10,403 bases of DNA from Christensenella sp. UBA3857 (GTDB lineage: Bacteria; Bacillota; Clostridia; Christensenellales; CAG-138): positions 1-10,403 of the forward strand of contig DGHD01000052.1 of the NCBI GenBank assembly GCA_002392505.1, in the 5' to 3' direction. Position 1 is the first letter of the stretch. Each line of letters starts with the position of its first letter. The translations under genes were made by a program, and so were the position numbers. This document shows, piece after piece, positions 1 to 10,403 of this stretch. The notes under the pieces were generated by a model, which made no database searches, was not told the origin of the DNA, and worked only from the letters and a program-made list of their open reading frames with translations.

Positions 1-837
1 GGCATCATGACCACCGGCGGCGGCAGGACCTACGCGTACGATCTTAACGTCACCACGAGCGGACAGTCCTCCGCGCCCATCCGCTCCGACCGCGGCGGCG
101 GCATAGTCGTTGTCGAGGGCGGCACTTATACCTCGAACGGGCTCGGCTCTCCCGCCATATACTCCACGGCGGATATCACCGTGTCGAAGGCGAAGCTCGT
201 TTCCAATCTTTCGGAGGGCGTCTGCATAGAGGGACTCAATTCGATCACGCTCAACAACTGCGAGCTTACCGCCAACAACACCAAATGCAACGGCAACGCC
301 TCGTTTTTCGACAGCATAATGCTTTATCAGTCGATGTCGGGCGACGCGGCGAGCGGCACCGCTTCGTTCAATATGACGGGCGGCTCGCTTACGAGCAAAA
401 ACGGGCACGTTTTCCACGTGACCAACACCAGCGCGGTCATCACTCTCGAGGGAGTCAGGATAGTCAACGAGGATAAGGACAACGTGCTCCTCTCCGTCTG
501 CGCCGACGGCTGGTCGGGCGGATCGAACGTCGCCGTGCTCCGCGCCGTTGGGCAGGAGCTTGACGGCACGCTGCTCGTCGGAAGCGACTCGAAGCTCACG
601 CTCGAGCTGACGAGCGGATCGTCCTTCACCGGCTTGATAGGCGGGAACATCGTGAACGCGAAGGGTGCGACCGTCTCGACCGAGGTCGGCGAGGTCTCCG
701 TCACCATAGACGCTTCGAGCACCTGGACGCTCACGGGAGACACCTATATCACCGAGTTTATCGGCGACGCGTCGAGCATCATCTCAAACGGCTGCTCGCT
801 GTACGTCAACGGCGTGAAGCTGACGGGAACAAGGTAA
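1..837 (+). CDS. C-terminal part of a secreted beta-helix / adhesin-like repeat protein (5' end outside window)
   Basis: The frame is open from the first base and ends at TAA 835-837, so this is the last ~278 residues of a longer protein; the ATG at base 7 has no ribosome binding site and is unlikely to be the start. The translation is rich in Gly, Ser, Thr, Asn and Val and is built of short strands with turn motifs such as GGTYTSNG, NCELTANN and MTGGSLTSKNG, the pattern of right-handed parallel beta-helix proteins (pectate-lyase-like or autotransporter-like passenger folds). It has few lysines and no transmembrane segment, and ends in TGTR without an LPXTG sorting signal, so anchoring, if any, must come from the missing N-terminal part. 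Such proteins are usually surface adhesins or polysaccharide-binding proteins; no catalytic residues are recognisable here. The gene converges with the DUF3795 gene across a shared terminator. The fold call is fairly sure, the role is not. Confidence 0.7.
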   Translation, partial: GIMTTGGGRTYAYDLNVTTSGQSSAPIRSDRGGGIVVVEGGTYTSNGLGSPAIYSTADITVSKAKLVSNLSEGVCIEGLNSITLNNCELTANNTKCNGNASFFDSIMLYQSMSGDAASGTASFNMTGGSLTSKNGHVFHVTNTSAVITLEGVRIVNEDKDNVLLSVCADGWSGGSNVAVLRAVGQELDGTLLVGSDSKLTLELTSGSSFTGLIGGNIVNAKGATVSTEVGEVSVTIDASSTWTLTGDTYITEFIGDASSIISNGCSLYVNGVKLTGTR

Positions 838-852
838 GTAAACAGCAAAAAA

Positions 853-888
853 ACCCGCCGTTCAAGCAAAACGGCGGGTCGTTTTTTT
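853..888. terminator. Bidirectional Rho-independent terminator
   Basis: A perfect 10-bp stem (853-862 with 870-879) encloses a 7-base loop. It is followed on the + strand by a T run (882-888) and preceded by an A run (847-853) that becomes a T run on the - strand. It lies between the convergent beta-helix gene (stop at 837) and DUF3795 gene (stop at 890) and should stop transcription from both sides. Confidence 0.9.
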
Positions 889-889
889 G

Positions 890-1228
890 TTAAAGCTCCA
901 TATCGAGGTTTTCGCGCGCTTCCGCGCTGTTCGCTGTGATCAGGCGGAGCTTTTCGCAGGAGGCTTTTTCGGCGCAGCCCCCGCAGAAGGACACGGCTTT
1001 TTCGAGCGCGCACTGCCGGATAGGGCAAAGGGATTCGCAGAAGGGCGTCTTTCTGCCCGCGGCGCGGCAGCCATCGCAGTTTATCATTTCGGGCGTTATT
1101 GAAACGCCGTTAAGCTCCGACCAAAGCGAAGCCACCTTCTTCCGCAAGGCGTCGTCGTTGTTTTTCGTCGCGGCGAACGCCTCGCATTTTTCGCAGTCAA
1201 GACCGCAGTAAGCGATAAGCTCTTTCAT
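890..1228 (-). CDS. DUF3795 family cysteine-rich small protein
   Basis: This 112-residue protein opens with the family signature YCGLDCEKCEAF (residues 7-18) and carries 11 cysteines (8, 12, 15, 51, 54, 64, 68, 73, 82, 85, 91), several in CxxC spacing (DCEKC, CDGC, CGGC). That is typical of DUF3795, a family of small cytoplasmic proteins suspected of binding zinc or an iron-sulfur cluster; no reaction is established. There is no signal peptide or membrane segment. The ATG is preceded by GGGAGG at normal spacing. It lies 23 bases behind the thrE-like gene on the same strand with no promoter in the gap, so the two should be co-transcribed, ending at the terminator at 853-879. Whether it has anything to do with amino-acid export is unknown. 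Confidence 0.85.
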   Translation of the reverse strand: MKELIAYCGLDCEKCEAFAATKNNDDALRKKVASLWSELNGVSITPEMINCDGCRAAGRKTPFCESLCPIRQCALEKAVSFCGGCAEKASCEKLRLITANSAEARENLDMEL

Positions 1229-1251
1229 ATTCCCTCCCGTACCGCGTGTGA

Positions 1252-2484
1252 TCAGCGCTTCTTTTTCTTAATGAGCTTCGCCGCGCCGAGCACGTATTTC
1301 ATGCCCGCCTCGACGATCATAAGCCCCATTACTATACCGAACGCGGTGCTTAAAAGCTTTGTCCCGCCGGACGCGGCAAGCGCCTTGTCGCCCGAGACGA
1401 GCCCGTGCATCATCTGGTAAAGCGACGAGCCCGGCGCGAGCGGGAGCACGCCGATCGTCACGAAGATAGTCGCGGGGGCTTTTTCGACCCTTGCCATTAT
1501 CTGCGAGTAGACGCAGCAGAACGCCGCGGCGATGAGCCTGCAAAGGAAGTTGGAGCTGATAAAGCTCGAGGCGGCAAGGTATGCGCCGACCATCAGAACG
1601 CCGCCGAGGGCGCACGCCGCAAGGCGCCTTCCCTTAACGCCGAACCAAAGCGCAAAGCCCAGGCAGATTATCACCGCGAATACCAGCAGGAGGATCGCGC
1701 CGGGCTGCGCCGCCTCCGCTTCGGCGGGGACCCACGCCCTCAAAGCGTAGAGCGGCACGGCTATGCCGAGCGCGATCCCGAGGGCGCCCGTGACCGAAAG
1801 GGTGATATTCGATATTCCCGAAAGGGGGTCGAGGTGGATCAGATCGCGTATGCCGTTTGTCGCCGCAAGACCGGATATCAGCATCATTACGACGCTCGCC
1901 GTTATCAGCCCGACGTGATGCCCGAAGCCGAGATGCACGCAGGTGATGATGAAGAATTCGCTCAGCATGGACACGGCGAGATTGAGTATCAGCGGGTTCG
2001 ATTCCCTTCCGGAAAGCCGGCGCACGGCGAACGTGATCAAAAGCGACGCCGCCGCGACGACGAGGATATCCATAAAGTCGCAGCCGAAGAACCCGGCGAA
2101 GCCTATTACGCCGAGTATGCCGGCAAGGTAGGTGATAAATGCGCGGCGCTTCTTTTTGACCGAGACGGCGGCGAATTCCCCGGCGAATTCTTCCGCGTCG
2201 GGTTTTTCGCCGACGACCTTTCTGGAAAGCGAATTGAGCGCGTCAAGCTGACCGAAATCCGTGGAAGTACCGTGTATGTGGCGGATCTCCGAAAAGACCT
2301 CCCCGTCGGGGGACGTGACCGTGCCCTGAACGGTCGACGGCACGACCCAGAAATTGACGTTTTCAAAGCCGTAGCTTTCGGCGAGCATATAAACGGCGGT
2401 CGTCACGCGGCGCGTTTCGCCGCCGCAGCCGATCATGGCGGCGCCGAGATCGAGTATGAGTCCGAATATCTTACGGTATTCCAT
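1252..2484 (-). CDS. ThrE-type threonine/serine exporter, fused N and C domains
   Basis: The 410-residue protein belongs to the threonine/serine exporter family (ThrE; the split form is YjjP/YjjB). Residues 1-~112 are the soluble N-terminal part with the conserved region GCGGETRRVT (19-28) and a RHIHGTSTDFGQLD segment. Hydrophobic helices then run from ~117 to ~245 (first membrane half), and a second membrane half runs from ~262 to ~400 with the C-domain hallmark GVLPLAPGSSLYQMM (345-359). The tail is KKKKR. Many Bacillota encode these halves as two genes; here they are one chain, as in Corynebacterium ThrE. The expected role is proton-motive-force-driven export of Thr/Ser or small peptides from the cytoplasm; the substrate cannot be read from sequence. 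The start is supported by an AGGAAAGGAAG-like site and by the promoter at 2518-2546. DUF3795 follows 23 bases downstream. Confidence 0.88.
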   Translation of the reverse strand: MEYRKIFGLILDLGAAMIGCGGETRRVTTAVYMLAESYGFENVNFWVVPSTVQGTVTSPDGEVFSEIRHIHGTSTDFGQLDALNSLSRKVVGEKPDAEEFAGEFAAVSVKKKRRAFITYLAGILGVIGFAGFFGCDFMDILVVAAASLLITFAVRRLSGRESNPLILNLAVSMLSEFFIITCVHLGFGHHVGLITASVVMMLISGLAATNGIRDLIHLDPLSGISNITLSVTGALGIALGIAVPLYALRAWVPAEAEAAQPGAILLLVFAVIICLGFALWFGVKGRRLAACALGGVLMVGAYLAASSFISSNFLCRLIAAAFCCVYSQIMARVEKAPATIFVTIGVLPLAPGSSLYQMMHGLVSGDKALAASGGTKLLSTAFGIVMGLMIVEAGMKYVLGAAKLIKKKKR

Positions 2485-2517
2485 AACGCTTCCTTTCCTG
2501 CGTTTCTTATTAAGGCA

Positions 2518-2546
2518 AGTCTAACATATCCTTCTTTGTTTTTCAA
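2518..2546 (-). promoter_or_regulatory. Sigma-A-like promoter of the thrE-like/DUF3795 unit
   Basis: On the - strand, TTGAAA (2541-2546) and TAGACT (2518-2523) are separated by 17 bases, with an extended -10 TG (TGTTAGACT). It lies just upstream of the exporter start at 2484. The 15 bases over the -10 (2517-2531) are identical to those of the GNAT promoter at 4138-4152. No convincing terminator is seen between this promoter and the S66 gene, so read-through from upstream is also possible. Confidence 0.7.
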
Positions 2547-2583
2547 TCCGGCAGAGGAATAATGCCGTCCCGGACGATCGCGG

Positions 2584-3609
2584 TCAAACGACGCCGCTCT
2601 CCGAAATACTGAATTCAAGCGCGTCGATATCGAGCTCCGCCTCCGCGCCGTAGGGCAGTATGAAGGTCGGCGACGAATGCCCGAAGTTGAGCCCGCTCAT
2701 GACGGGGAGATCAGGCCGCCCGTATTTATCCGAAACGATGCTCCGGATGCACTCTGCGAACGGGGCGAAGCTGTCCGGCGAACGCAGCTTGCCTATTATC
2801 ATGCCGCGGATCGCTTCAAGGAAGCCGCTCTGCCCCAGCCAATCGAGAAATACGGTCAGATACTCAACGTCGCAAAGCTCGGGGATATCCTCGAAAAAGA
2901 GTATGCTGCCCTCAAAATCCTTCCTTTCGACGAGCGCAGATCCGTCCGGCGCGCGGAGAGTCCTGATATCCGCATGACCTCCGAAAAGCTTTCCGCTCAC
3001 GCGGCCCCTGCCCTGCACATACTGACAGCCGGGGTTGGGCACGTATGTTTTGAGGGAAGCCCTGTCGGTGCGGGAACCCGCGCTGAAGGACCATTCGTCG
3101 GAGGGCTCGATCGTGCCGAGCGGCGAAGCGTCGAAAAAGGTCTTCACGAACCAGCGGCGGCTGTAGGGATGCCATCGCCCGTTCTCCGCGATCGAGGTGA
3201 GGAGATTATCGCCGTAAAAGGTCGAAAGCCCCAGCCGCCAAAGGTAGAGATGGATCGTCATGATATCCGAATAGCCGCAGAATATCTTGGGGTTTTCAAT
3301 GAACGGCTCCGGCTTGAGATAGGGGAGCAGGCGCACGGAGTCGTTCCCGCCTATGTTGGCTATTACCGCCTTGACGTTTTTGTTCTCAAACGCCCACATA
3401 AGGTCGTCCGCACGCGCTTCGGGGTTGTTTTTAAGATATGCGGTCCCCCGCAGCGAGTTGGGCGCGGCGACGACCTCGAGTCCAAGCTCGTTAAGGCGCG
3501 CGCAGCCCAGCCGGTACTGCCATTTTACGCGCGGAGCGCCGGCGCAGCCCCAGGACGGGCTGACCGCGGCAACGGTATCTCCTTTATTCAGCTTTGGCGG
3601 TTTGATCAT
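2584..3609 (-). CDS. S66 family serine peptidase, MccF-like (LD-carboxypeptidase fold)
   Basis: This 341-residue cytoplasmic protein has no signal peptide. It begins with the family opening KPPKLNKGDTVAAVSPSWG. The nucleophile elbow is CGYSDIM with Ser114; the other triad members are best placed at Glu240 (LFFEDIP) and His311 (NFGHSSP), in the order and spacing of S66 enzymes (Ser-Glu-His). The segment before the nucleophile reads IGGNDSVRLLPYL, like the MccF branch, rather than the RGGYG form of murein LD-carboxypeptidase LdcA. MccF cleaves the amide bond of microcin C and related aminoacyl-nucleotides; LdcA trims murein tetrapeptides in recycling. Which substrate applies here is open, with the MccF-like branch favoured. 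The start has AGAGG upstream. It follows the GNAT gene by 27 bases on the same strand, so they form one unit. Confidence 0.87.
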   Translation of the reverse strand: MIKPPKLNKGDTVAAVSPSWGCAGAPRVKWQYRLGCARLNELGLEVVAAPNSLRGTAYLKNNPEARADDLMWAFENKNVKAVIANIGGNDSVRLLPYLKPEPFIENPKIFCGYSDIMTIHLYLWRLGLSTFYGDNLLTSIAENGRWHPYSRRWFVKTFFDASPLGTIEPSDEWSFSAGSRTDRASLKTYVPNPGCQYVQGRGRVSGKLFGGHADIRTLRAPDGSALVERKDFEGSILFFEDIPELCDVEYLTVFLDWLGQSGFLEAIRGMIIGKLRSPDSFAPFAECIRSIVSDKYGRPDLPVMSGLNFGHSSPTFILPYGAEAELDIDALEFSISESGVV

Positions 3610-3636
3610 ACGAACCTCTTTTCACAGGCGGCAAAG

Positions 3637-4077
3637 TCAAAATGTCTTGAAAAACGACGCAAGCTCCGTAAGCTCGTCAAAGCCGAGCTTCTTATAAAAT
3701 CCGTAGGCGGGCATATTCCTGTCGGTCATAAGGAAGACGGTGTTTATACCGCGTTTTTTAAGCTCGGCTTCAATAAGTGAAAAGAACTCCTTGCCGACGC
3801 CCCTTCCCTGATATTCCGCGCGGAGACACAGCTCCTCGATAAAATACTCGGTACCGCCGCACCAATGCTTGATCTTGCCGACGGAAACGCCGGCAAGAAG
3901 ATCCCCGTCGAACAGCCCGTACACGAGCGAGCCGCGGACCTCGGTAAGATCCCGCAGGTAATTATCAAGCTGCTTTTCGTCGCTCCAATCCTCATTCCAG
4001 GGCGGCGCGCCGAATACTTCCCCAAGCATGCGCTTTATCTCTTCGAAAAAGGTCTGATCGATTTCTTTTATGTACAT
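3637..4077 (-). CDS. GNAT family N-acetyltransferase
   Basis: This 146-residue single-domain acetyltransferase shows motif A as ELCLRAEYQGRGVGKEFF (82-99; the acetyl-CoA pyrophosphate loop Q90-G-R-G-V-G95) and motif B as NMPAYGFYKKLGF (121-133). It transfers an acetyl group from acetyl-CoA to an amine; the substrate is not recognisable. The frame is open further upstream to 4167, but the ATG at 4075-4077 is chosen because GAGGGAG lies just before it and because the promoter (-10 at 4139-4144, -35 at 4162-4167) falls inside the longer version, which therefore cannot be transcribed in full. It is the first gene of a unit with the S66 peptidase. In microcin C clusters a GNAT domain (MccE) and an S66 enzyme (MccF) are both immunity factors, so the pairing is suggestive. 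Confidence 0.88.
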   Translation of the reverse strand: MYIKEIDQTFFEEIKRMLGEVFGAPPWNEDWSDEKQLDNYLRDLTEVRGSLVYGLFDGDLLAGVSVGKIKHWCGGTEYFIEELCLRAEYQGRGVGKEFFSLIEAELKKRGINTVFLMTDRNMPAYGFYKKLGFDELTELASFFKTF

Positions 4078-4138
4078 AATGCTCCCTCGACGGTCGACCG
4101 CGTTAACGCCTTGACGCGATCTCAACGGTATCGGGATA

Positions 4139-4167
4139 AGTCTAACATATCCCGCGCCGCAATTCAA
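4139..4167 (-). promoter_or_regulatory. Sigma-A-like promoter of the GNAT/S66 unit
   Basis: On the - strand, TTGAAT (4162-4167) and TAGACT (4139-4144) are separated by 17 bases, with an extended -10 TG. Transcription should start near 4131, leaving a leader of about 50 bases before the ATG at 4077. The block GGATATGTTAGACTT is identical to that of the exporter promoter at 2517-2531. Confidence 0.72.
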
Positions 4168-4244
4168 TCGCAGGCATGAAAAAACCGCGCCGCGCCGGCC
4201 GATGAGAGCGCCGTCAGCACGCCCTGCCGTTCGAGGCGGAAACC

Positions 4245-4277
4245 AAAAAGCGCCGCCCCCCTCGGGAGGGGAGCGGC
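4245..4277 (-). terminator. Rho-independent terminator of the PepSY gene
   Basis: Read on the - strand, a GC-rich stem of ten pairs (4268-4277 with 4252-4261, one of them a G-U wobble) has a 6-base loop and is followed by five T (4249-4245). It starts 12 bases after the PepSY stop codon. The rest of the gap to the GNAT promoter (4168-4244) is GC-rich and holds nothing else that can be supported. Confidence 0.7.
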
Positions 4278-4288
4278 AAACGCGGGGC

Positions 4289-4801
4289 TTATGCCGCGGA
4301 GTCTTTTTCGGCGGAGCGGCGCTCGCCGCAGTGCCTGTGTCCTTCGTGCGCGGAGTCGTCGGCGACTCTCATGCTCTGCACTTCGCCCGTCAGCGGATCG
4401 ACTCTGAAGGAGTACTTCTGCCCGTTGTATCTGAAGCTGACTCTGTAAACGACCGTGCCGTCCTTATCGGATACTCTTGCTCTGAGCTTTTCGACCTGCT
4501 CCGCCGTGAGTCCGGCTTCCGCGAGCGCCGCTTCCTTTGCGGCGTCCTTGCCTATCGCGTTCTCGGGCTCGGCGGCTTCCTCGGGTCTGCCGCGGCGCCT
4601 TGCGTGATCTTCTCTGCCTTCCGGTCTTGCCCTTCTTTCGCCGTTCGTCTCATTCGCCGGCACGGATATTTCGGTTCTCTGCTCCGCGTTCGCGATTTCG
4701 CTTTGATCGCTTCTCTCCGCCAGCGCCGCGGGGACCGCGACCGCCGTCATAAGTCCCAGGCACGTAAGCGCCGCCGCTATTCTCTTAATTCTCTTTTTCA
4801 T
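4289..4801 (-). CDS. Secreted PepSY-domain protein
   Basis: The 170-residue protein starts with a classical signal peptide (KKRIKR, hydrophobic 8-22, likely cut after AALA at 28). A charged, Arg/Glu-rich linker (~29-80) follows, then one PepSY domain (~82-146): IGKDAAKEAALAEAGL, then a strand ending VVYRVSFRYNGQKYSF and the typical RVDPLTGEVQS. PepSY domains are small extracytoplasmic folds first linked to protease inhibition and are common near two-component systems. After the domain comes a short tail with HEGHRHC (His152, His155, His157, Cys158) that could bind metal. AGGAG sits 8 bases before the ATG. It is divergent from the response regulator/kinase pair and shares an operator region with it, so it is probably a target of that system and may act as an accessory sensor or a brake on a protease. 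This role is inferred. Confidence 0.85.
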   Translation of the reverse strand: MKKRIKRIAAALTCLGLMTAVAVPAALAERSDQSEIANAEQRTEISVPANETNGERRARPEGREDHARRRGRPEEAAEPENAIGKDAAKEAALAEAGLTAEQVEKLRARVSDKDGTVVYRVSFRYNGQKYSFRVDPLTGEVQSMRVADDSAHEGHRHCGERRSAEKDSAA

Positions 4802-4857
4802 AATGATCGCTCCTTTTCGTTTTTTGTTCCGCGGTCTATTCCCTTCCGCTTGAGCGC

Positions 4858-4893
4858 ATTATAGCAGAGGCATAAGGCTCCGGTCTCCGAAAA
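4858..4893 (-). promoter_or_regulatory. PepSY gene promoter: perfect -10, activator-type -35 region
   Basis: On the - strand a perfect TATAAT lies at 4863-4858, but the position 17 bases upstream shows no TTGACA-like element. Instead TTTTCGGAGA (4893-4884) lies at about -41 to -32. The same ten bases occur at the same place (7321-7330) before the -10 of the lipoprotein gene. A good -10 without a -35 suggests dependence on an activator bound upstream. Confidence 0.6.
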
Positions 4894-4907
4894 CGATCTG
4901 CGGAATT

Positions 4908-4938
4908 TACGAAATTCATACGAAGCTTCTCGTATGAA
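4908..4938. promoter_or_regulatory. Candidate response-regulator operator in the divergent PepSY / two-component intergenic region
   Basis: Nine-base arms TTCATACGA (4915-4923) and TCGTATGAA (4930-4938) form a perfect dyad around six bases. In addition TACGAA occurs at 4908-4913 and 4919-4924, an 11-base step as is usual for tandem half-sites of OmpR/PhoB-type regulators. The dyad centre (4926.5) is 63.5 bases from the nearest base of both TATAAT boxes (4863 leftward, 4990 rightward). A related site precedes the lipoprotein gene at 7290. Binding is inferred from this arrangement. Confidence 0.6.
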
Positions 4939-4940
4939 AT

Positions 4941-4958
4941 GCCGCAGTTTATTGCGGC
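4941..4958. other. Small hairpin next to the operator
   Basis: GCCGCA (4941-4946) and TGCGGC (4953-4958) form a perfect 6-bp stem with a 6-base loop, followed by TTTT. It sits upstream of the response-regulator promoter, so it is not in that transcript. It could be a weak terminator against rightward background transcription or another protein site; its role is unclear. Confidence 0.3.
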
Positions 4959-4966
4959 TTTTGTCA

Positions 4967-4995
4967 TTGAAATCAAAGGAAAAAACCGATATAAT
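4967..4995 (+). promoter_or_regulatory. Sigma-A-like promoter of the response regulator / kinase operon
   Basis: TTGAAA (4967-4972) and a perfect TATAAT (4990-4995) are 17 bases apart, predicting a start near 5002 and a leader of about 28 bases. Unlike the PepSY and lipoprotein promoters it has a good -35, so a basal level of the regulator can be made without activation. One TCGTATG half-site (4930-4936) lies upstream, permitting autoregulation. Confidence 0.8.
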
Positions 4996-5029
4996 ACTGT
5001 GTGACGAAAAGCTTTGCAGGAGGCATACC

Positions 5030-5728
5030 GTGGATCCCGAAAAGAAACGCATCTATATAGCGGACGACGACGGCAGCATAAGGCAGGTGATAAAGACCTT
5101 CCTTATTAACGACGGCTATGAGACGGAGGATTTCCCCACCGGGGACGCCCTGTATGAACGCTTTGAGGAGACGCCCTGCGATCTCGTCATACTCGACGTA
5201 ATGATGCCCGGCAGCGACGGCTTTGCGATACTGACGAAGCTCCGCGCGGTGAGCACCGTGCCCGTAATAATGCTGACGGCAAGGGATTCGGAAAACGATC
5301 TTGCCATGGGGCTGGGTCTCGGCAGCGACGATTACATCACCAAGCCCTTCTCCGCGATGGCGCTCCTCATGCGCGTACGCGCGATATTCAGAAGGATAGA
5401 GTTCGAGAACGCGAAGTTCAGACCCGTTCAGAACGAAACGCGCTTCGGAAGGCTCGCCCTTGACGAGTCCTCCCGCGCGATACTGCTCGATAAGGAGCCG
5501 ATGCCCCTCACGCCTACCGAATACGGAGTACTGCGCGACCTCATGCTCCACCCCGGCGAGGCGGTCTCCCGCGAGGAGCTCCTCAACAGGATATGGGGCT
5601 TCGAGTCGGTCGTGGAAACCCGCGCGACGGACGATACGGTAAGGCGGCTTCGCCAGAAGCTGGAGGGGAGCGGCGTCAGGATAGCCGCGGTCTGGGGCTA
5701 CGGGTTCCGGCTTGAGGAAGAGAAATGA
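5030..5728 (+). CDS. OmpR/PhoB-family response regulator
   Basis: The 232-residue protein has a receiver domain (~6-120) with acidic pocket D12-D14, phospho-acceptor Asp56 (LVILDVMMPGSDG), Thr83 (IMLTA) and Lys105 (YITKPF). A winged-helix DNA-binding domain follows (~137-230): LTPTEYGVLRDLMLHPGEAV, the recognition-helix region with VRRLRQKL, and the wing VWGYGFRLE. The start is GTG 5030-5032, because AGGAGG (5018-5023) is 6 bases upstream and the -10 box at 4990-4995 lies inside the longer open frame that begins with an ATG at 4934. It is phosphorylated by the kinase encoded next, whose ATG overlaps this stop (ATGA, 5725-5728). Likely targets are the divergent PepSY gene, its own promoter and the lipoprotein/HtrA operon, which share TTCGTATG-type sites. 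Confidence 0.95.
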   Translation: MDPEKKRIYIADDDGSIRQVIKTFLINDGYETEDFPTGDALYERFEETPCDLVILDVMMPGSDGFAILTKLRAVSTVPVIMLTARDSENDLAMGLGLGSDDYITKPFSAMALLMRVRAIFRRIEFENAKFRPVQNETRFGRLALDESSRAILLDKEPMPLTPTEYGVLRDLMLHPGEAVSREELLNRIWGFESVVETRATDDTVRRLRQKLEGSGVRIAAVWGYGFRLEEEK

Positions 5729-7062
5729 AAAAGCGTCGTTTGAAAACCAAACTGCTCATAACGCTCGTCGGCGTCACCTGCGCGGCGCTCGTTGCCGTCG
5801 CGCTCGCGTTCAACCTGTCGGTGCGCGGCTACATTAACGCGCGCGTCAATTCGCAGCTCGCTACCATTTCGTCCTCCGTATTTGACGGGCGAAAGGACGG
5901 TCACGGGAGCTGGTCCTTTGACGACCGGCCCGACAGAGTGACCGGCGCCCGCGGCAACGCCGTTATTCTGAGCTCCGAGGGCGAGCTCGTAGTCGTGCTG
6001 CGCGGCGACGAGGATACCGCACAGTTCATTGCCGAGAGCTACACCTCCGGCAAGCTGACAGCCGGCGGGAAATACACCACGCTTAAGACCGACGACGGAA
6101 CCTATGCCGTGACGCTTTCGGAGGATCCCGTCATCAAGAACGCGTACATCGCCTCGTTCATAGACATCACCGCGATCACGGGACTTGCCTCGCGCATGAA
6201 TATCATACTTATTATTGTTATCGCGGCGGCGATAATACTCTGCGTCATACTTAGCCGCGTGTTTGCAAAACAGCTGTCAAAGCCCGTGCAGTGCCTATCG
6301 GACTACGCGCACGACATAGGCGAGGGCGATCTCGAGCCGCGCGAGATGGATTTCAAGGAGGAGGAGTTCTCCGGTCTCGCCGATTCGATGAACCGCATGG
6401 CGGCGGCGCTGAAGGAATCGAAGAGCCGCCAGGAGGTGTTCTTCCAGAACGTATCGCATGAGCTTCGCACCCCGCTGACGTCCATAAAAGGCAACGCCGA
6501 GGGCATCGTTTACGGAGTGATGGAGCCGAAGGCGGCGGGGGAGACCATCATCCGCGAAACGGACAGGCTCACGTCCATGGTCGAGGATCTTCTTTATATC
6601 TCCCGCATGGAAAAGGCGGGCGGCGCGGAGAACGCGGAGCCTGTCGACGTAAGGGACGTGCTTTCCCTCTGCGTTTCCGAACAGAGAGCGGAGGCGGACA
6701 AGCGGGGCCTGACGTTTGAATTCGACTTCGACGACGAGCCCGCCATGGTCCGCATTCCCGAAAAGGACGCCGAGCGCATATTCGGCAACGTCATTTCAAA
6801 CGCGATAAGGTATGCGAAGCGGACCATCGGTCTAGCATGCCATGATACGGGCGACAGTATCGCCGTCTGCATCCGCGACGACGGTCCCGGCATACCCGAG
6901 AAGGACCTCGAGCACATATTCGAGCGGTTCTACAAGGGCGAGGGCGGCAGGCACGGCATAGGTCTTTCGATCGCGAAGGAGGCGGCGGAGGCGTACGGAG
7001 GGCGCCTGACCGCCGCGAACGATCCCGGCGCTGCGTTCACAGCGGTATTCCCGAAAAAGTAA
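5725..7062 (+). CDS. Membrane sensor histidine kinase (HAMP, HisKA, HATPase_c)
   Basis: The 445-residue protein has TM1 (~9-33), an extracytoplasmic sensor region (~34-158) that matches no domain I recognise, and TM2 (~159-179). Then come HAMP (~181-232, KQLSKPVQCLSDYAHDIGEGD), a HisKA dimerisation domain with phospho-acceptor His245 in FQNVSHELRTPLTSIKG, and an ATPase domain with N box (NVISNAIRYA, Asn355/Asn359), G1 box DDGPGI (385-390), F box HIFERFYKG (397-405) and G2 box GRHGIGLSIA (408-417). All key residues are present, so it should be an active kinase. The 4-base ATGA overlap with the response regulator indicates translational coupling. Neighbouring PepSY and HtrA genes suggest that it senses an envelope or secretion stress; the signal itself is not visible in the sequence. 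Confidence 0.95.
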   Translation: MKKRRLKTKLLITLVGVTCAALVAVALAFNLSVRGYINARVNSQLATISSSVFDGRKDGHGSWSFDDRPDRVTGARGNAVILSSEGELVVVLRGDEDTAQFIAESYTSGKLTAGGKYTTLKTDDGTYAVTLSEDPVIKNAYIASFIDITAITGLASRMNIILIIVIAAAIILCVILSRVFAKQLSKPVQCLSDYAHDIGEGDLEPREMDFKEEEFSGLADSMNRMAAALKESKSRQEVFFQNVSHELRTPLTSIKGNAEGIVYGVMEPKAAGETIIRETDRLTSMVEDLLYISRMEKAGGAENAEPVDVRDVLSLCVSEQRAEADKRGLTFEFDFDDEPAMVRIPEKDAERIFGNVISNAIRYAKRTIGLACHDTGDSIAVCIRDDGPGIPEKDLEHIFERFYKGEGGRHGIGLSIAKEAAEAYGGRLTAANDPGAAFTAVFPKK

Positions 7063-7149
7063 AGCGATACCGGATAATTGAGCCTTGGTCCAAGGGTGCA
7101 TCCGCTTAAGGAGATGCAGGTTTTCAGCCTGAAAAAAACGTATAAAAAG

Positions 7150-7183
7150 ATATCCGGGGATAGCCCATATCCGGGGATAGCCC
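7150..7183 (+). repeat. Tandem 17-base duplication of the terminator's left arm
   Basis: ATATCCGGGGATAGCCC is present twice head to tail (7150-7166, 7167-7183) with no mismatch, followed by the single complementary arm. Either copy can pair with that arm. It looks like a recent replication-slippage duplication. Confidence 0.8.
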
Positions 7184-7203
7184 ATATCCCCGGATCTTTT
7201 TTT
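7169..7203 (+). terminator. Rho-independent terminator after the histidine kinase
   Basis: A perfect 11-bp stem (7169-7179 with 7185-7195) and a 5-base loop are followed by CTTTTTTT (7196-7203). It ends the two-component operon about 107 bases after the kinase stop and separates it from the lipoprotein promoter. Confidence 0.9.
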
Positions 7204-7231
7204 ATTTCGGCTGAAAACCGCGAAGCGTCTC

Positions 7232-7275
7232 AAAAGATACCTTTTGAGGCTGTATATCGTTAAGTGAAGGCGCCC
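7232..7275 (+). repeat. Interspersed repeat, copy A
   Basis: These 44 bases match bases 10333-10376 in inverted orientation with 42 identities. The left edge takes part in a perfect 8-bp hairpin (CTCAAAAG 7229-7236 with CTTTTGAG 7241-7248); in copy B the hairpin has one mismatch. Homology stops abruptly after GCGCCC. It lies between the kinase terminator and the lipoprotein operator and encodes nothing. Confidence 0.8.
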
Positions 7276-7289
7276 GATCCGGGGCTGTT

Positions 7290-7355
7290 TTCGTATGTTT
7301 TGCGTATTTTTCGCCGCTCTTTTTCGGAGATGCGGGAGGTGAAAACGCCTATAAT
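7290..7355 (+). promoter_or_regulatory. Regulated promoter of the lipoprotein/HtrA operon with response-regulator site
   Basis: A perfect TATAAT (7350-7355) has no acceptable -35 at 17 bases. Upstream lie TTCGTATG (7290-7297) and CGTAT (7303-7307), the two CGTAT being 11 bases apart, and TTTTCGGAGA (7321-7330). Over the 41 bases from 7290, 32 are identical without gaps to the - strand from 4924 down in front of the PepSY gene, and the distance to the -10 is 60 against 61 bases. The two promoters are therefore very probably controlled by the same regulator, most simply the adjacent one. Confidence 0.65.
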
Positions 7356-7387
7356 GGGCTCAAGAAAAGAAACAGGAGGCGTTCAAA

Positions 7388-8671
7388 ATGAAATCCGGAA
7401 AAAACAAGCTCCTTCCCATCCTGCTCGCGCTGGCGGTCATGCTCTCCATGCTGATGCTCACCGCCTGCAGCGGCGTCGGGGAAAGCATCGCGGGAAATAC
7501 CGCTCTTTCTCAGACTTCACAGCTCGTATCGACAGGCGATACGCTCTCGGCGGTTTCGCTCGCGGCTTCATCCGATACAGGCGCAATTGCCGATGACGCT
7601 TTCTCGAACAGAGACCTCTCGGGCGAGTATGACGCCGATGAAGCGACGGCGATCGATCTCAACAGCTATAACGGCTCCGACGTGGTCATATCGGAAGCCG
7701 GGACTTTCGTCCTGACAGGCACTCTTGAAAACGGCAGCGTCGTCATTGACGCGTCAAGCGAGGACAAGATACAGCTCGTGCTGAACGGAGCCTGCATCAG
7801 CTCCGATTCCTACGCGGCGATATACGTCAAGCAGGCGGACAAGGTCTTCATCACCCTGGCGGAAGGGACTGAGAATACCCTCTCAAACGGCGGCTCGTTC
7901 GTACAGAAGGACGACAACACCGTCGACGGCGTCATCTTCTCCAAGGACGATCTTACGATCAACGGCACGGGCACGCTCACGATAGTATCCCCCGCCGGGC
8001 ACGGCGTCGTCTGCAAGGATGAGCTTGTCATAACCGGCGGCACGATTAAAATAACTGCGGGCTCCCACGCGATCCAGGCAAAGGACAGCATCGCGGTCGC
8101 AGGCGGAAACATCACGCTCCGCGCCGGCAAGGACGGGATGCACGCCGAAAACGACGAGGACGATACCCTCGGCACGATCTACGTCACCGGCGGCAGCTTC
8201 TCGATAAACGTCGGGGACGACGGGATCCATGCGGGATCCCTTCTCAGGATAGACGGAGGCGCATTCGATATCACTGCGGCAGAAGGGCTTGAAGCGACGT
8301 ACGTGCAGATCAACGACGGCGATATCACGATATCCGCCTCGGACGACGGCATAAACGCGGCGAAAAAGTCGACCGCATACACTCCCACGGTCGAGATCAA
8401 CGGCGGCAGTCTTGATATCTCCATGGGGCAGGGCGATACCGACGGTATCGACGCCAACGGCAGCCTTATCATAACGGGCGGCACGATAGCCGTCACCGGC
8501 AATTCCGCCTTCGACTGCGACGGCTCCGTTACCTGGACCGGCGGCACCGTGACTGTGAACGGTCAGCAGCAGACCGAGATCACCAACCAGATGATGGGCG
8601 GTCCCGGCGGTATGGGCGGTCAGCCCGGCTCCGGCGGCATGGGCGGCTTCGGCGGAGGACGCCGCAGATAA
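7388..8671 (+). CDS. Beta-helix lipoprotein, Cthe_2159-type carbohydrate-binding domain
   Basis: The 427-residue protein has a lipoprotein signal (KSGKNK, hydrophobic 8-24, lipobox LTAC with Cys27), so it should be lipid-anchored on the outer face of the membrane. A Ser/Thr/Ala-rich linker (~28-75) leads to a right-handed beta-helix (~80-395). Its coils recur as GTLTIVSPAGHGV, GGTIKITAGSHAIQA, GGNITLRAGKDGMHAEND, GGSFSINVGDDGIHAG and DGDITISASDDGINAA. The repeated GxDGI/MxA turns with acidic residues fit the Cthe_2159 family (carbohydrate-binding domain, formerly DUF4353), whose founder binds polygalacturonate and calcium. The tail (~402-427) is Gly/Met-rich and ends in RRR. AGGAGG precedes the ATG by 8 bases. 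The upstream operator suggests control by the two-component system; htrA follows 47 bases downstream. Ligand binding here is inferred. Confidence 0.85.
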   Translation: MKSGKNKLLPILLALAVMLSMLMLTACSGVGESIAGNTALSQTSQLVSTGDTLSAVSLAASSDTGAIADDAFSNRDLSGEYDADEATAIDLNSYNGSDVVISEAGTFVLTGTLENGSVVIDASSEDKIQLVLNGACISSDSYAAIYVKQADKVFITLAEGTENTLSNGGSFVQKDDNTVDGVIFSKDDLTINGTGTLTIVSPAGHGVVCKDELVITGGTIKITAGSHAIQAKDSIAVAGGNITLRAGKDGMHAENDEDDTLGTIYVTGGSFSINVGDDGIHAGSLLRIDGGAFDITAAEGLEATYVQINDGDITISASDDGINAAKKSTAYTPTVEINGGSLDISMGQGDTDGIDANGSLIITGGTIAVTGNSAFDCDGSVTWTGGTVTVNGQQQTEITNQMMGGPGGMGGQPGSGGMGGFGGGRRR

Positions 8672-8718
8672 ACCGGGAATACGACAAGTGAAAGAAATAC
8701 CAAAAGGAGGACGGAAAC

Positions 8719-10077
8719 ATGTACGAGAATGATTATTACCCCGAATTCAACGCTGCCGAAACGGCGGCAAACCATAACGTCAGAGCTAATGAAAAAGCCC
8801 CCGCGAGGAAGCGCAGAACGGGCAGAAGACTCCTCTCCATGCTGCTCTGCGGCATCATGTTCGGCACTGCGGCTGCGGGAGCATACAAGGGAACGAGCTT
8901 GCTGTTGAACAGAGAAAGCGGGAGCCGGACCGAAGTATCCGAAGAGGAAAGCACGGCGGAAAACACGGAGCGGAATACGGTCTCCGACGTCACCGCGGTA
9001 TCCTATGCTTCCGACTCCGTAAAGACTTCGCAGACGCTTGACGTAAGCGAGATCGCCGAGGGCGCGATGCCCTCCATGGTATCGATCACGAATATCAGCG
9101 TGCAGGAGGTGCAGAGCTTCATGGGCTTCTTCGGCGGGAGAGGGACCGAGACGCAGGAGTCCGAGAGCAGAGGAACGGGCATCATAATCGGCAAAAACGA
9201 GAGCGAGCTGCTGATAGTCACGAACAACCACGTAGTTGAAGACGCCGACACGCTGACCGTCTGCTTCATAGACAACGAGGCGTGCGAGGCCCAGATAAAG
9301 GGTCTCGATCCGGATAACGATCTTGCGGTCGTCGCGGTGCGGCTCTCCGATATCAAGGACGAGACCGCCGCCGCCATCAGGATCGCCGTGCTCGGCAGCT
9401 CCGATTCGCTCAAAGTCGGTCAGCAGGTGGTCGCTATCGGCAACGCGCTGGGCTTCGGACAGTCCGTAACCACGGGCATAGTCAGCGCGCTCGGCAGAAC
9501 TATAGATACCGCCGACGCCGAGATGATACAGACCGACGCCGCGATCAACCCGGGCAATTCCGGCGGCGCGCTGCTCAACATGAACGGAGAGGTCGTCGGC
9601 ATCAACTCCGCCAAGTTCAGCTCCACCGAGGTGGAGGGCATGGGCTATGCAATATCGATCACCGACGCGCTCCCCATCATCCGGGACCTCATGAACCGCA
9701 CCACGAGAGAGAAGGTCTCCGACGCGGACGCTTCATGGCTCGGCGTTGACGGGCAGGAGATAACCGCCTCGACGGCGTCCTCCTACGGCATACCGCAGGG
9801 GATATACCTGACTTCGATCGACAGCAGAAGCCCCCTGCGTGAGCTCGGCATTACCGTCAAAAGCATAATAACTCACTTCGACGGCGTCCGCGTAACGAGC
9901 ATCGAGAACCTCGAAAACCGTCTTCAATATTATGCGGCGGGCGAAACGGTGAGTATCACCCTGCAGGTCGCCGAGGGGAAGAAGTACGTCGAAAGGACCG
10001 TCGAGGTCACGCTCGGCAGAGCGTCGGAGCATACACAGCCCGTCGGCGGATCCGGATTCGGCTTCGGCGGATGGTGA
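8719..10077 (+). CDS. htrA: Membrane-anchored HtrA/DegP-like serine protease with one PDZ domain
   Basis: The 452-residue protein has a cytoplasmic N-terminus of ~38 residues, one membrane anchor (~38-58, after KRRTGRR) and a Ser/Glu/Thr-rich linker. A trypsin-like S1C protease domain (~108-328) has the complete triad: His171 (TNNHVVEDA), Asp201 (DPDNDLAVV) and Ser281 (NPGNSGGALLN). A PDZ domain follows (~338-434), and a short Gly/Phe tail ends GFGFGGW. The architecture matches Bacillota HtrA/YyxA proteins, which degrade or refold misfolded exported proteins at the outer face of the membrane. AGGAGG lies 9 bases before the ATG. There is no promoter in the 47-base gap after the lipoprotein gene, so it depends on the regulated promoter at 7290-7355. 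In Bacillus the CssRS two-component system controls htrA; the arrangement here supports an analogous circuit. Confidence 0.95.
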   Translation: MYENDYYPEFNAAETAANHNVRANEKAPARKRRTGRRLLSMLLCGIMFGTAAAGAYKGTSLLLNRESGSRTEVSEEESTAENTERNTVSDVTAVSYASDSVKTSQTLDVSEIAEGAMPSMVSITNISVQEVQSFMGFFGGRGTETQESESRGTGIIIGKNESELLIVTNNHVVEDADTLTVCFIDNEACEAQIKGLDPDNDLAVVAVRLSDIKDETAAAIRIAVLGSSDSLKVGQQVVAIGNALGFGQSVTTGIVSALGRTIDTADAEMIQTDAAINPGNSGGALLNMNGEVVGINSAKFSSTEVEGMGYAISITDALPIIRDLMNRTTREKVSDADASWLGVDGQEITASTASSYGIPQGIYLTSIDSRSPLRELGITVKSIITHFDGVRVTSIENLENRLQYYAAGETVSITLQVAEGKKYVERTVEVTLGRASEHTQPVGGSGFGFGGW

Positions 10078-10093
10078 TGAACGAATAAAACAA

Positions 10094-10125
10094 ATACCGC
10101 CTCCGGGTACTCCCGAAGGCGGTAT
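10094..10125. terminator. Terminator hairpin between htrA and the GNAT remnant
   Basis: A 9-bp stem (10094-10102 with 10117-10125), one mismatch, then four more pairs and a TACT loop are followed by a T-rich stretch on + (CGGTTTATCTTT) and on - (TTGTTTTATT). It stands 16 bases after the htrA stop and probably serves both directions, though neither T tract is perfect. Confidence 0.7.
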
Positions 10126-10152
10126 CGGTTTATCTTTGCAAACCGGGTGTTG

Positions 10153-10344
10153 TCAGACAGACAGTTGATAATACCTCGATGCCCTTCCGCCCTCAACAAA
10201 CTCTTCAATAAGATCAAAACCGTTTTTTTCAAGAACTCTCTGCGACGCAGTATTATCCGAAAACGTGAAAGCCCCGACCGTCCCGATCCCGAACCTTTCA
10301 TGCATCTCTCTCAAAAAAAGCGAAACGGCTTTGGGCGCATTCAC
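10153..10344 (-). pseudogene. GNAT acetyltransferase remnant lacking its N-terminal half
   Basis: The 63-residue open frame reads as the C-terminal half of a GNAT acetyltransferase: KAVSLFLREMHERFG is the helix after motif A, and FTFSDNTASQRVLEKNGF is a textbook motif B. The acetyl-CoA loop (Q/RxxGxG/A) and all strands before it are absent. The only possible start is a GTG (10344-10342) directly preceded by an in-frame TAA and lacking a ribosome binding site. No other frame upstream continues the GNAT sequence. The break coincides with interspersed repeat copy B, whose last bases supply the GTG and the first codons. The remnant is presumably not functional; an alternative is a rearranged gene whose other half lies elsewhere. 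Confidence 0.7.
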
Positions 10345-10376
10345 TTAACGATATGCAGCCTCAAAAGGTATCTTTT
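10333..10376 (-). repeat. Interspersed repeat, copy B (inverted relative to copy A)
   Basis: This 44-base segment matches copy A at 7232-7275 with 42 identities when read on the - strand. Beyond 10376 the similarity to the flank of copy A is weak, but the repeat could extend into unseen sequence. It overlaps the 5' end of the GNAT remnant. Confidence 0.8.
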
Positions 10377-10403
10377 TAGCGCCCTGCTGCGTTGAAAATG
10401 CTC

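What the first reader, a model, noticed from the sequence alone, without database searches (positions are those of the whole stretch)
7290..7355. A second copy of the PepSY promoter architecture 2.4 kb away, in front of the lipoprotein/htrA operon
From TTCGTATG at 7290 on the + strand and from base 4924 on the - strand, 32 of 41 bases agree with no gap. Shared elements are TTCGTATG, CGTA one helical turn later, CGC, and TTTTCGGAGA at the -35 position. The TATAAT starts 60 and 61 bases downstream, and both promoters lack a normal -35. Coding genes on either side are unrelated, so this is best explained as a conserved regulatory site. It defines a predicted regulon: PepSY, lipoprotein and htrA, plus partly the regulator operon itself.
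Basis: seen in the sequence. Interest (0 to 1): 0.7.

Follow-up and report, generated by a model that had tools for sequence, protein, structure and literature searches.

The report
Shared switch site for envelope genes
Two promoters in an uncultured gut-type bacterium carry the same control site, which is kept in ten relatives that own one particular neighbouring regulator and was not found in four close relatives without it, so it is very probably that regulator's DNA switch for a few cell-surface genes.

Summary
In detail: 7290-7330 (+) and 4924-4884 (-) agree at 32 of 41 positions, with -10 boxes 60 and 61 bases from the site start, more than shuffles give. The block has an 11-bp repeat period, as in OmpR/PhoB-type operators. 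Before the Cthe_2159-type lipoprotein, 26 of 41 site columns are invariant in 10 genomes, against 0 of 41 upstream and 0 of 19 in the spacer; spacing is 60 in 10 of 10. Before PepSY it is 61 in 8 of 8; the regulator promoter has CGT at 61 in 10 of 11. Four congeneric genomes without the regulator give no match to the site patterns; two genomes of another genus, picked through the kinase, have both sites. Best reading: operator of the adjacent OmpR-family regulator, serving a local regulon. Corrections: no wider regulon is seen in a half-complete genome, and htrA follows in only 5 of 10 loci, whereas the lipoprotein is the constant target. Half-sites resemble the VanR consensus only modestly. 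Binding and activation are inferred. New member of a known kind.

The parts
7290..7330 (+). operator of the lipoprotein(-htrA) promoter: 11-bp-period repeat TTCGTAT/TGCGTAT/(CGC)/TTCGGAG
   Evidence: 32 of 41 identical to 4924-4884 (-); 26 of 41 columns invariant in 10 genomes
7350..7355 (+). -10 box TATAAT of the lipoprotein promoter, 60 bases from the site start
   Evidence: spacing 60 in 10 of 10 genomes; 6 of 6 columns invariant
4884..4924 (-). operator of the PepSY promoter
   Evidence: same architecture in 8 of 8 genomes with an adjacent PepSY gene
4858..4863 (-). -10 box TATAAT of the PepSY promoter, 61 bases from the site start
   Evidence: spacing 61 in 8 of 8; TATAAT in 5, TATACT in 3
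4929..4936 (+). CTCGTATG half-site of the regulator promoter, inverted to the PepSY site
   Evidence: CGT at the 61-base position in 10 of 11 genomes; in G010 TTCAT at 60
4967..4995 (+). regulator promoter TTGAAA-17-TATAAT
   Evidence: 11 of 12 consensus matches; -35 TTGAAA in 7 of 11, TTGCAT or TTGCGT in 4 of 11
4289..4801 (-). PepSY-domain protein (170 aa), probably secreted (hydrophobic N-terminus, by eye)
   Evidence: PF03413, E 4.7e-08
5030..5728 (+). OmpR/PhoB-family response regulator, GTG start
   Evidence: PF00072 and PF00486; orthologs align from this start; TRATDDTVRRLRQKL, taken as the recognition-helix region, identical in 10 of 10 orthologs compared, own included
5725..7062 (+). 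HAMP-type sensor histidine kinase
   Evidence: HisKA and HATPase_c; His245 invariant in 30 aligned sequences: own plus 29 of the 120 listed homologs
7388..8671 (+). Cthe_2159-type carbohydrate-binding protein, lipoprotein-like N-terminus (by eye)
   Evidence: PF14262, E 6.9e-82
8719..10077 (+). HtrA-type serine protease, 47 bp downstream of the lipoprotein gene; cotranscription inferred, terminators there not scanned
   Evidence: Trypsin_2, PDZ; Do-family model 246.4 bits, below its cut-off of 416.2
7092..7275 (+). dispersed repeat between kinase gene and operator, ending 14 bp before the operator
   Evidence: 43 matches to the 201-base query in the own genome, itself included; the other seven genomes aligned have a contiguous hairpin-like stretch there instead (by eye)

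Best explanation
The 41-bp block is the operator of the OmpR/PhoB-family response regulator encoded at 5030-5728. Phosphorylated by the kinase next to it, the regulator most likely binds as head-to-tail dimers to 11-bp-spaced half-sites (TTCGTA-N5-TtCGTA, degenerate CGC, TTCGGAG) and recruits RNA polymerase to promoters that have a -10 but no -35. It thereby switches on the surface lipoprotein (with htrA behind it in this genome) and the divergent PepSY gene; a related, inverted half-site at the same distance lets it tune its own operon, which has a basal -35. The PepSY protein probably feeds back on the kinase or acts on HtrA outside the cell. Shown: architecture, conservation, spacing, co-occurrence. 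Inferred: binding, activation, the signal, the feedback.
For: Footprint: 26 of 41 site columns invariant in 10 genomes; 0 of 41 upstream, 2 of 4 in the T-run just before the site, 0 of 19 in the spacer, 6 of 6 in the -10. Spacing 60 in 10 of 10 lipoprotein promoters, 61 in 8 of 8 PepSY promoters and CGT at 61 in 10 of 11 regulator promoters. Self-match of 18 sites peaks at lag 11 (0.48; next best 0.33 over lags 5-19). Co-occurrence: pattern found in 8 of the 9 congeneric genomes with the regulator (the ninth, G005, keeps a PepSY-side site whose -10 TATACT the pattern excludes, and its contig ends before the lipoprotein), 0 of 4 without it. Two genomes of another genus picked by the kinase have both sites. 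Recognition-helix region identical in 10 of 10. In G001, G008 and G011, where no close PepSY was found, the tandem half-sites beside the regulator remain (intact in G008, one or two changes in G011 and G001), while TTTTCGGAGA is lost in G008 and G011 and partly kept in G001.
Against: No binding or expression data. The third repeat unit is degenerate and 2 bp out of phase. The eleven genomes come from two genera of one family and share ancestry, so invariance is not eleven independent observations. Four regulator-less genomes are few, one of them (G002) only 70% complete, and relatives of the second genus without the kinase were not searched for the site. Control patterns also hit: 6 times against 11, 2 against 13, 2 against 4, though this does not explain why the true hits cluster at one locus. 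Of nine upstream regions of more distant regulators (41-56% identical), three (G208, G641, G055) beat at least 996 of 1000 shuffles and six do not; all nine score far below the true sites.
Confidence: 0.8

Rival explanations
1. The block is the operator of a different transcription factor encoded elsewhere; the neighbouring two-component genes are themselves just targets.
For: The regulator promoter carries only part of the site, as a mere target might. Congeneric genomes encode other OmpR-family regulators about 40% identical.
Against: The site patterns occur in 8 of 9 congeneric genomes with the regulator and 0 of 4 without it; the recognition-helix region is unchanged where the sites are unchanged; no further site stands out in the own genome, odd for an unlinked regulator.
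Confidence: 0.1
2. The regulator represses through this site rather than activating.
For: Position alone does not fix the sign; two-component regulators can do both (CutR activates htrA3 and represses htrB, PMC10433416, passages).
Against: Both promoters with the full site lack a -35 and the site lies wholly upstream of the -10, which fits activation; the promoter with a recognisable -35 has the partial site.
Confidence: 0.12
3. An RNA or terminator feature of the kinase operon end explains the conserved T-rich block.
For: A GC-rich hairpin-like stretch with a T tail lies just upstream of the lipoprotein site in relatives (by eye).
Against: The same block occurs on the other strand before PepSY without such a hairpin; it lies upstream of each -10; no Rfam family reaches its gathering score in the window; in this genome a repeat splits the hairpin while the block is intact.
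Confidence: 0.02
4. Recent duplication of a promoter segment, not selection, explains the resemblance.
For: Two copies 2.4 kb apart in one genome.
Against: Upstream and spacer columns are not conserved (0 of 41, 0 of 19) while 26 of 41 site columns are invariant across 10 genomes; both copies exist in two genera; the resemblance stops at the site (36 of the first 65 bases match, 32 of them in the first 41).
Confidence: 0.02

Closest known systems
PhoB/PhoP-type PHO boxes (OmpR/PhoB family)
   Same: Two 11-nt direct repeat units bound head to tail, consensus varying with the regulator (PMC4415409, passages); here an 11-bp period.
   Different: Half-site TTCGTA, not CTGTCAT; local regulon; PhoB models score far below their cut-offs.
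VanR operators (VanRS)
   Same: VanRG consensus (T/C)CGTANGAAA(T/A)T, three direct repeats, -35 not conserved (PMC4405338, passages); best half-site matches 11 of 11 in G008 and 10 of 11 in the window.
   Different: Shuffles of the window stretch reach 10 in 9 of 500 (11 in none); nine other genomes score 7-9; the regulator scores 164.6 bits against a VanR-family cut-off of 350.
DbfQRS of Vibrio cholerae
   Same: Small secreted PepSY protein next to a kinase/regulator pair; opposite-strand arrangements also reported there for other species (PMC12714742, passages).
   Different: dbfQ is predicted to be cotranscribed; here the gene is divergent. PepSY-kinase contact untested here.
CiaRH of streptococci
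   Same: TTTAAG-N5-TTTAAG direct repeat before the -10 (PMC3091779, passages); HtrA called CiaR-regulated in a title (PMC10197876, listing).
   Different: 15 promoters versus a local set; different half-site.
CutRS secretion-stress system of Streptomyces
   Same: Two-component regulator directly controlling HtrA3 and HtrB (PMC10433416, passages).
   Different: Here htrA is not the constant target; the lipoprotein is.
CpxAR with divergent cpxP and degP (recalled; only a search listing seen)
   Same: Divergent accessory gene and an HtrA-type protease in the pathway (recalled).
   Different: PepSY instead of CpxP; a clostridial genome.

Membership tests
OmpR/PhoB-type operator | Direct repeats about 11 bp apart | tested here: met
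   lag-11 self-match 0.48 against at most 0.33 at the other lags from 5 to 19 in 18 sites; third unit out of phase
OmpR/PhoB-type operator | Putative cognate regulator has receiver plus winged-helix domain | tested here: met
   PF00072 and PF00486
OmpR/PhoB-type operator | Fixed position relative to a promoter with weak -35 | tested here: met
   60 in 10 of 10, 61 in 8 of 8
OmpR/PhoB-type operator | Binding by the phosphorylated regulator | not testable with these tools
   needs protein and DNA
VanR family | Regulator reaches the VanR-family model cut-off | tested here: not met
   164.6 bits, cut-off 350
VanR family | (T/C)CGTANGAAA(T/A)T half-sites | tested here: inconclusive
   11 of 11 in G008, 10 of 11 in the window, 7-9 in nine others; shuffles reach 10 in 9 of 500
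DbfQRS-like PepSY/two-component module | PepSY protein encoded within a few genes of kinase and regulator | tested here: met
   adjacent and divergent in 8 of 11 genomes
DbfQRS-like PepSY/two-component module | PepSY protein binds the kinase sensor domain | not tested
HtrA-controlling secretion-stress systems | htrA is a conserved target | tested here: not met
   htrA follows the lipoprotein in 5 of 10 loci; in G010 its ortholog is on another contig without a pattern hit

The most novel reading that the evidence does not exclude
A self-contained, cis-local envelope circuit of Clostridia: a kinase/regulator pair with its own operator code drives just a carbohydrate-binding surface lipoprotein and a secreted PepSY modulator that feeds back on the kinase, and the set (genes plus operators) is gained and lost as one unit, a Gram-positive counterpart of Cpx/DbfQRS whose operator is read out here from sequence alone.
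Probability: 0.4. Interest if true: 0.5.

Novelty: new member of a known kind. Interest (0 to 1): 0.4.

Why it matters
It assigns a DNA code, targets and a testable wiring to an unnamed two-component system of uncultured Clostridia, and links Cthe_2159-type surface proteins and PepSY proteins to a specific regulator. The fixed 60/61-bp geometry gives a ready rule for finding the system in other genomes.

Tried and rejected
Wider regulon: the own-genome scan with up to 3 mismatches gave 90 matches against 101 for the control pattern. I looked at the nine 2-mismatch matches only, not at the 79 with 3: all nine lie in stop-free frames of 218 codons or more and none has a -10 at 55-66 bases; one (C56:9345-9361) abuts another regulator gene (match from C56:9367), so for it the frame test is weak. 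In the genus scans, off-locus hits were 1 of 11 and 2 of 13. A small wider regulon cannot be excluded: the own genome is 53.5% complete.

RNA element: no Rfam match at gathering score. Alternative coding: the 110-aa frame 7264-7596 overlaps the lipoprotein gene in another frame; rejected by inference.

Regulator start at ATG 4934: rejected, because orthologs align from the position of GTG 5030 and the longer matches hold in-frame stops in 5 of 8 congeneric orthologs (places of the stops not checked).

More distant regulators: nine upstream regions of regulators 41-56% identical were scored: G208, G641 and G055 beat at least 996 of 1000 shuffles, G752, G681, G621, G026, G032 and G002 did not. 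A repeat before the G681 regulator looked similar by eye but that region's best matrix match lay on the other strand and overlapped it only in part (28 of 1000 shuffles reach it). Left as suggestive. Kinase searches of 396 genomes of the order and 391 of the class gave, at E <= 1e-70, one and four further genomes, 35-44% identical. Metagenome proteins 49-91% identical to the kinase exist (120 listed of 5948); their surroundings were not seen.

Papers: searches. PMC8541618 (passages) gave no VanR consensus. One search listed one paper with VTC and CotH (PMC2879425, not read). One search found 0 papers with at least five of six terms; one search found 7 papers naming Cthe_2159, none read. I found no description of this system in these ten searches, which cover open-licence papers only.

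Full report
What is there. The window is contig C49, bases 1-10403, of a 1.42-Mb, 53.5%-complete genome. Two promoters share a 41-bp block: 7290-7330 on + and 4924-4884 on -, 32 of 41 identical without a gap. Over all ungapped 41-mer pairs in the window only this pair and a dispersed-repeat pair reach 32 matches; six shuffles within 100-bp blocks peaked at 28 (direct) and 30 (inverted).

Genes. Left: a PepSY protein (4289-4801, -). Right: an OmpR/PhoB-family regulator (start GTG 5030) and a HAMP histidine kinase, then a Cthe_2159-type lipoprotein and, 47 bp behind it, an HtrA-type protease. None of the 25 NCBIfam models shown for the regulator (of 93 hits) or for the kinase (of 84) reaches its cut-off, so I know no name for the system.

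Conservation. Regulator orthologs of 74-87% identity occur in 8 other congeneric genomes (G001, G003, G005, G006, G008-G011); the best matches in the remaining four (G002, G004, G007, G012) are about 36-41% identical. I fetched the loci and, after a kinase search of 103 genomes of the family that returned 10 at E <= 1e-50, eight of them already known here and two from another genus, those two. Upstream of the lipoprotein in 10 genomes (own included; G005 is dropped because its contig ends first), 26 of 41 site columns are invariant, against 0 of 41 upstream and 0 of 19 between site and -10; mean pairwise identity 0.85, 0.36 and 0.40. The four bases just before the site have 2 invariant columns.

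Geometry. Distance from site start to the -10: 60 in 10 of 10 lipoprotein promoters; 61 in 8 of 8 PepSY promoters. The regulator promoter, facing away from PepSY, has CGT at 61 in 10 of 11 (G010: TTCAT at 60) and, unlike the other two, a -35 (TTGAAA in 7 of 11; TTGCAT or TTGCGT in 4). Such rigid spacing with a missing -35 fits direct contact with RNA polymerase (inference). Self-comparison of 18 sites peaks at a lag of 11, the unit of PHO boxes (PMC4415409, passages); the third unit is weak and out of phase.

Whose site? The pattern CGTA-N7-CGTA-N38..48-TANAAT hits 8 of 13 congeneric genomes, all with the regulator; 10 of its 11 hits are at this locus and one (G010:C39) is not; the reversed control pattern hits 6 times. 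TTTTCGGAGA-N14..26-TANAAT gives 11 of 13 hits at this locus, two elsewhere (G000:C41, G009:C28), with 2 control hits. Neither pattern hits the four genomes without the regulator, which are 70-91% complete. The two genomes from another genus, picked by their kinase, have two hits each by the first pattern, all four at the locus, with 2 control hits; other members of that genus were not scanned for the site. The recognition-helix region (position recalled from the family's fold) is identical in 10 of 10 orthologs compared. In G001, G008 and G011, where no close PepSY relative was found, the tandem half-sites next to the regulator remain, while TTTTCGGAGA is lost in G008 and G011 and kept in part in G001. 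I read this as the tandem part serving the regulator promoter too.

Regulon. The lipoprotein is the constant target (10 of 10 loci). PepSY is adjacent in 8 of 11 genomes. HtrA follows the lipoprotein in G000, G006, G008, G009 and G011 only; in G010 its ortholog is on another contig, with no pattern hit there. No further sites stand out in the own genome, which is half complete; five congeneric genomes of 90-94% completeness with the regulator add one off-locus hit to the first pattern (G010:C39) and one to the second (G009:C28).

Mechanism (inferred beyond the anatomy). An envelope cue acts on the kinase; the phosphorylated regulator binds the repeats and activates the lipoprotein and PepSY promoters; its own promoter has basal activity plus tuning. 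PepSY may restrain the kinase, as DbfQ does DbfS in Vibrio cholerae, where PepSY genes near two-component genes are reported as more than 60-fold enriched (PMC12714742, passages), or may act on HtrA. The sign of regulation is not shown.

Relation to known systems. By architecture it is an OmpR/PhoB-type operator. The half-sites resemble the VanR consensus (PMC4405338, passages), 11 of 11 in G008 and 10 of 11 in the window, but shuffles reach 10 in 9 of 500, nine other genomes score 7-9, and the regulator fails the VanR model cut-off; not filed there. CiaR and CutR are functional parallels. Of nine upstream regions of more distant regulators, three show weak operator echoes and six do not. In two of five fetched distant loci (G681, G621) a Cthe_2159-like gene lies downstream of the kinase; for G621 Pfam confirms VTC, DUF4956 and Cthe_2159 there and an HtrA-type protease before the regulator.

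Verdict.

Noticed in passing
window 7092-7275 and 10333-10379: Copies of a dispersed repeat: 43 matches to the 201-base query in the own genome (itself included), 13 of them starting within 300 bases of a contig's first base. The 7092-7275 copy lies between two halves of a hairpin-like stretch that relatives have contiguous after the kinase gene (by eye), and brings its own terminator-like hairpin, 7169-7195.
   Followed up: partly
L252 (G621) 4767-11366; L251 (G681): Distant relatives place a related regulator/kinase pair upstream of a Cthe_2159 gene; in G621 VTC and DUF4956 genes lie between and an HtrA gene just before: an older association of these functions.
   Followed up: partly
G000:C56:9345-9361 (L011): A 2-mismatch relative of the tandem half-site abuts the start of another OmpR-family regulator gene, about 41% identical; no -10 at the expected distance.
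   Followed up: no
window 4289-4801: One PepSY domain here, but two separate matches at the PepSY locus of G003, G009 and G010 and two matched stretches in P0122 and P0124, one in P0131.
   Followed up: no
window 4941-4958: Terminator-like hairpin just upstream of the regulator -35 in this genome; by eye the pairing is not kept in relatives such as G008.
   Followed up: partly
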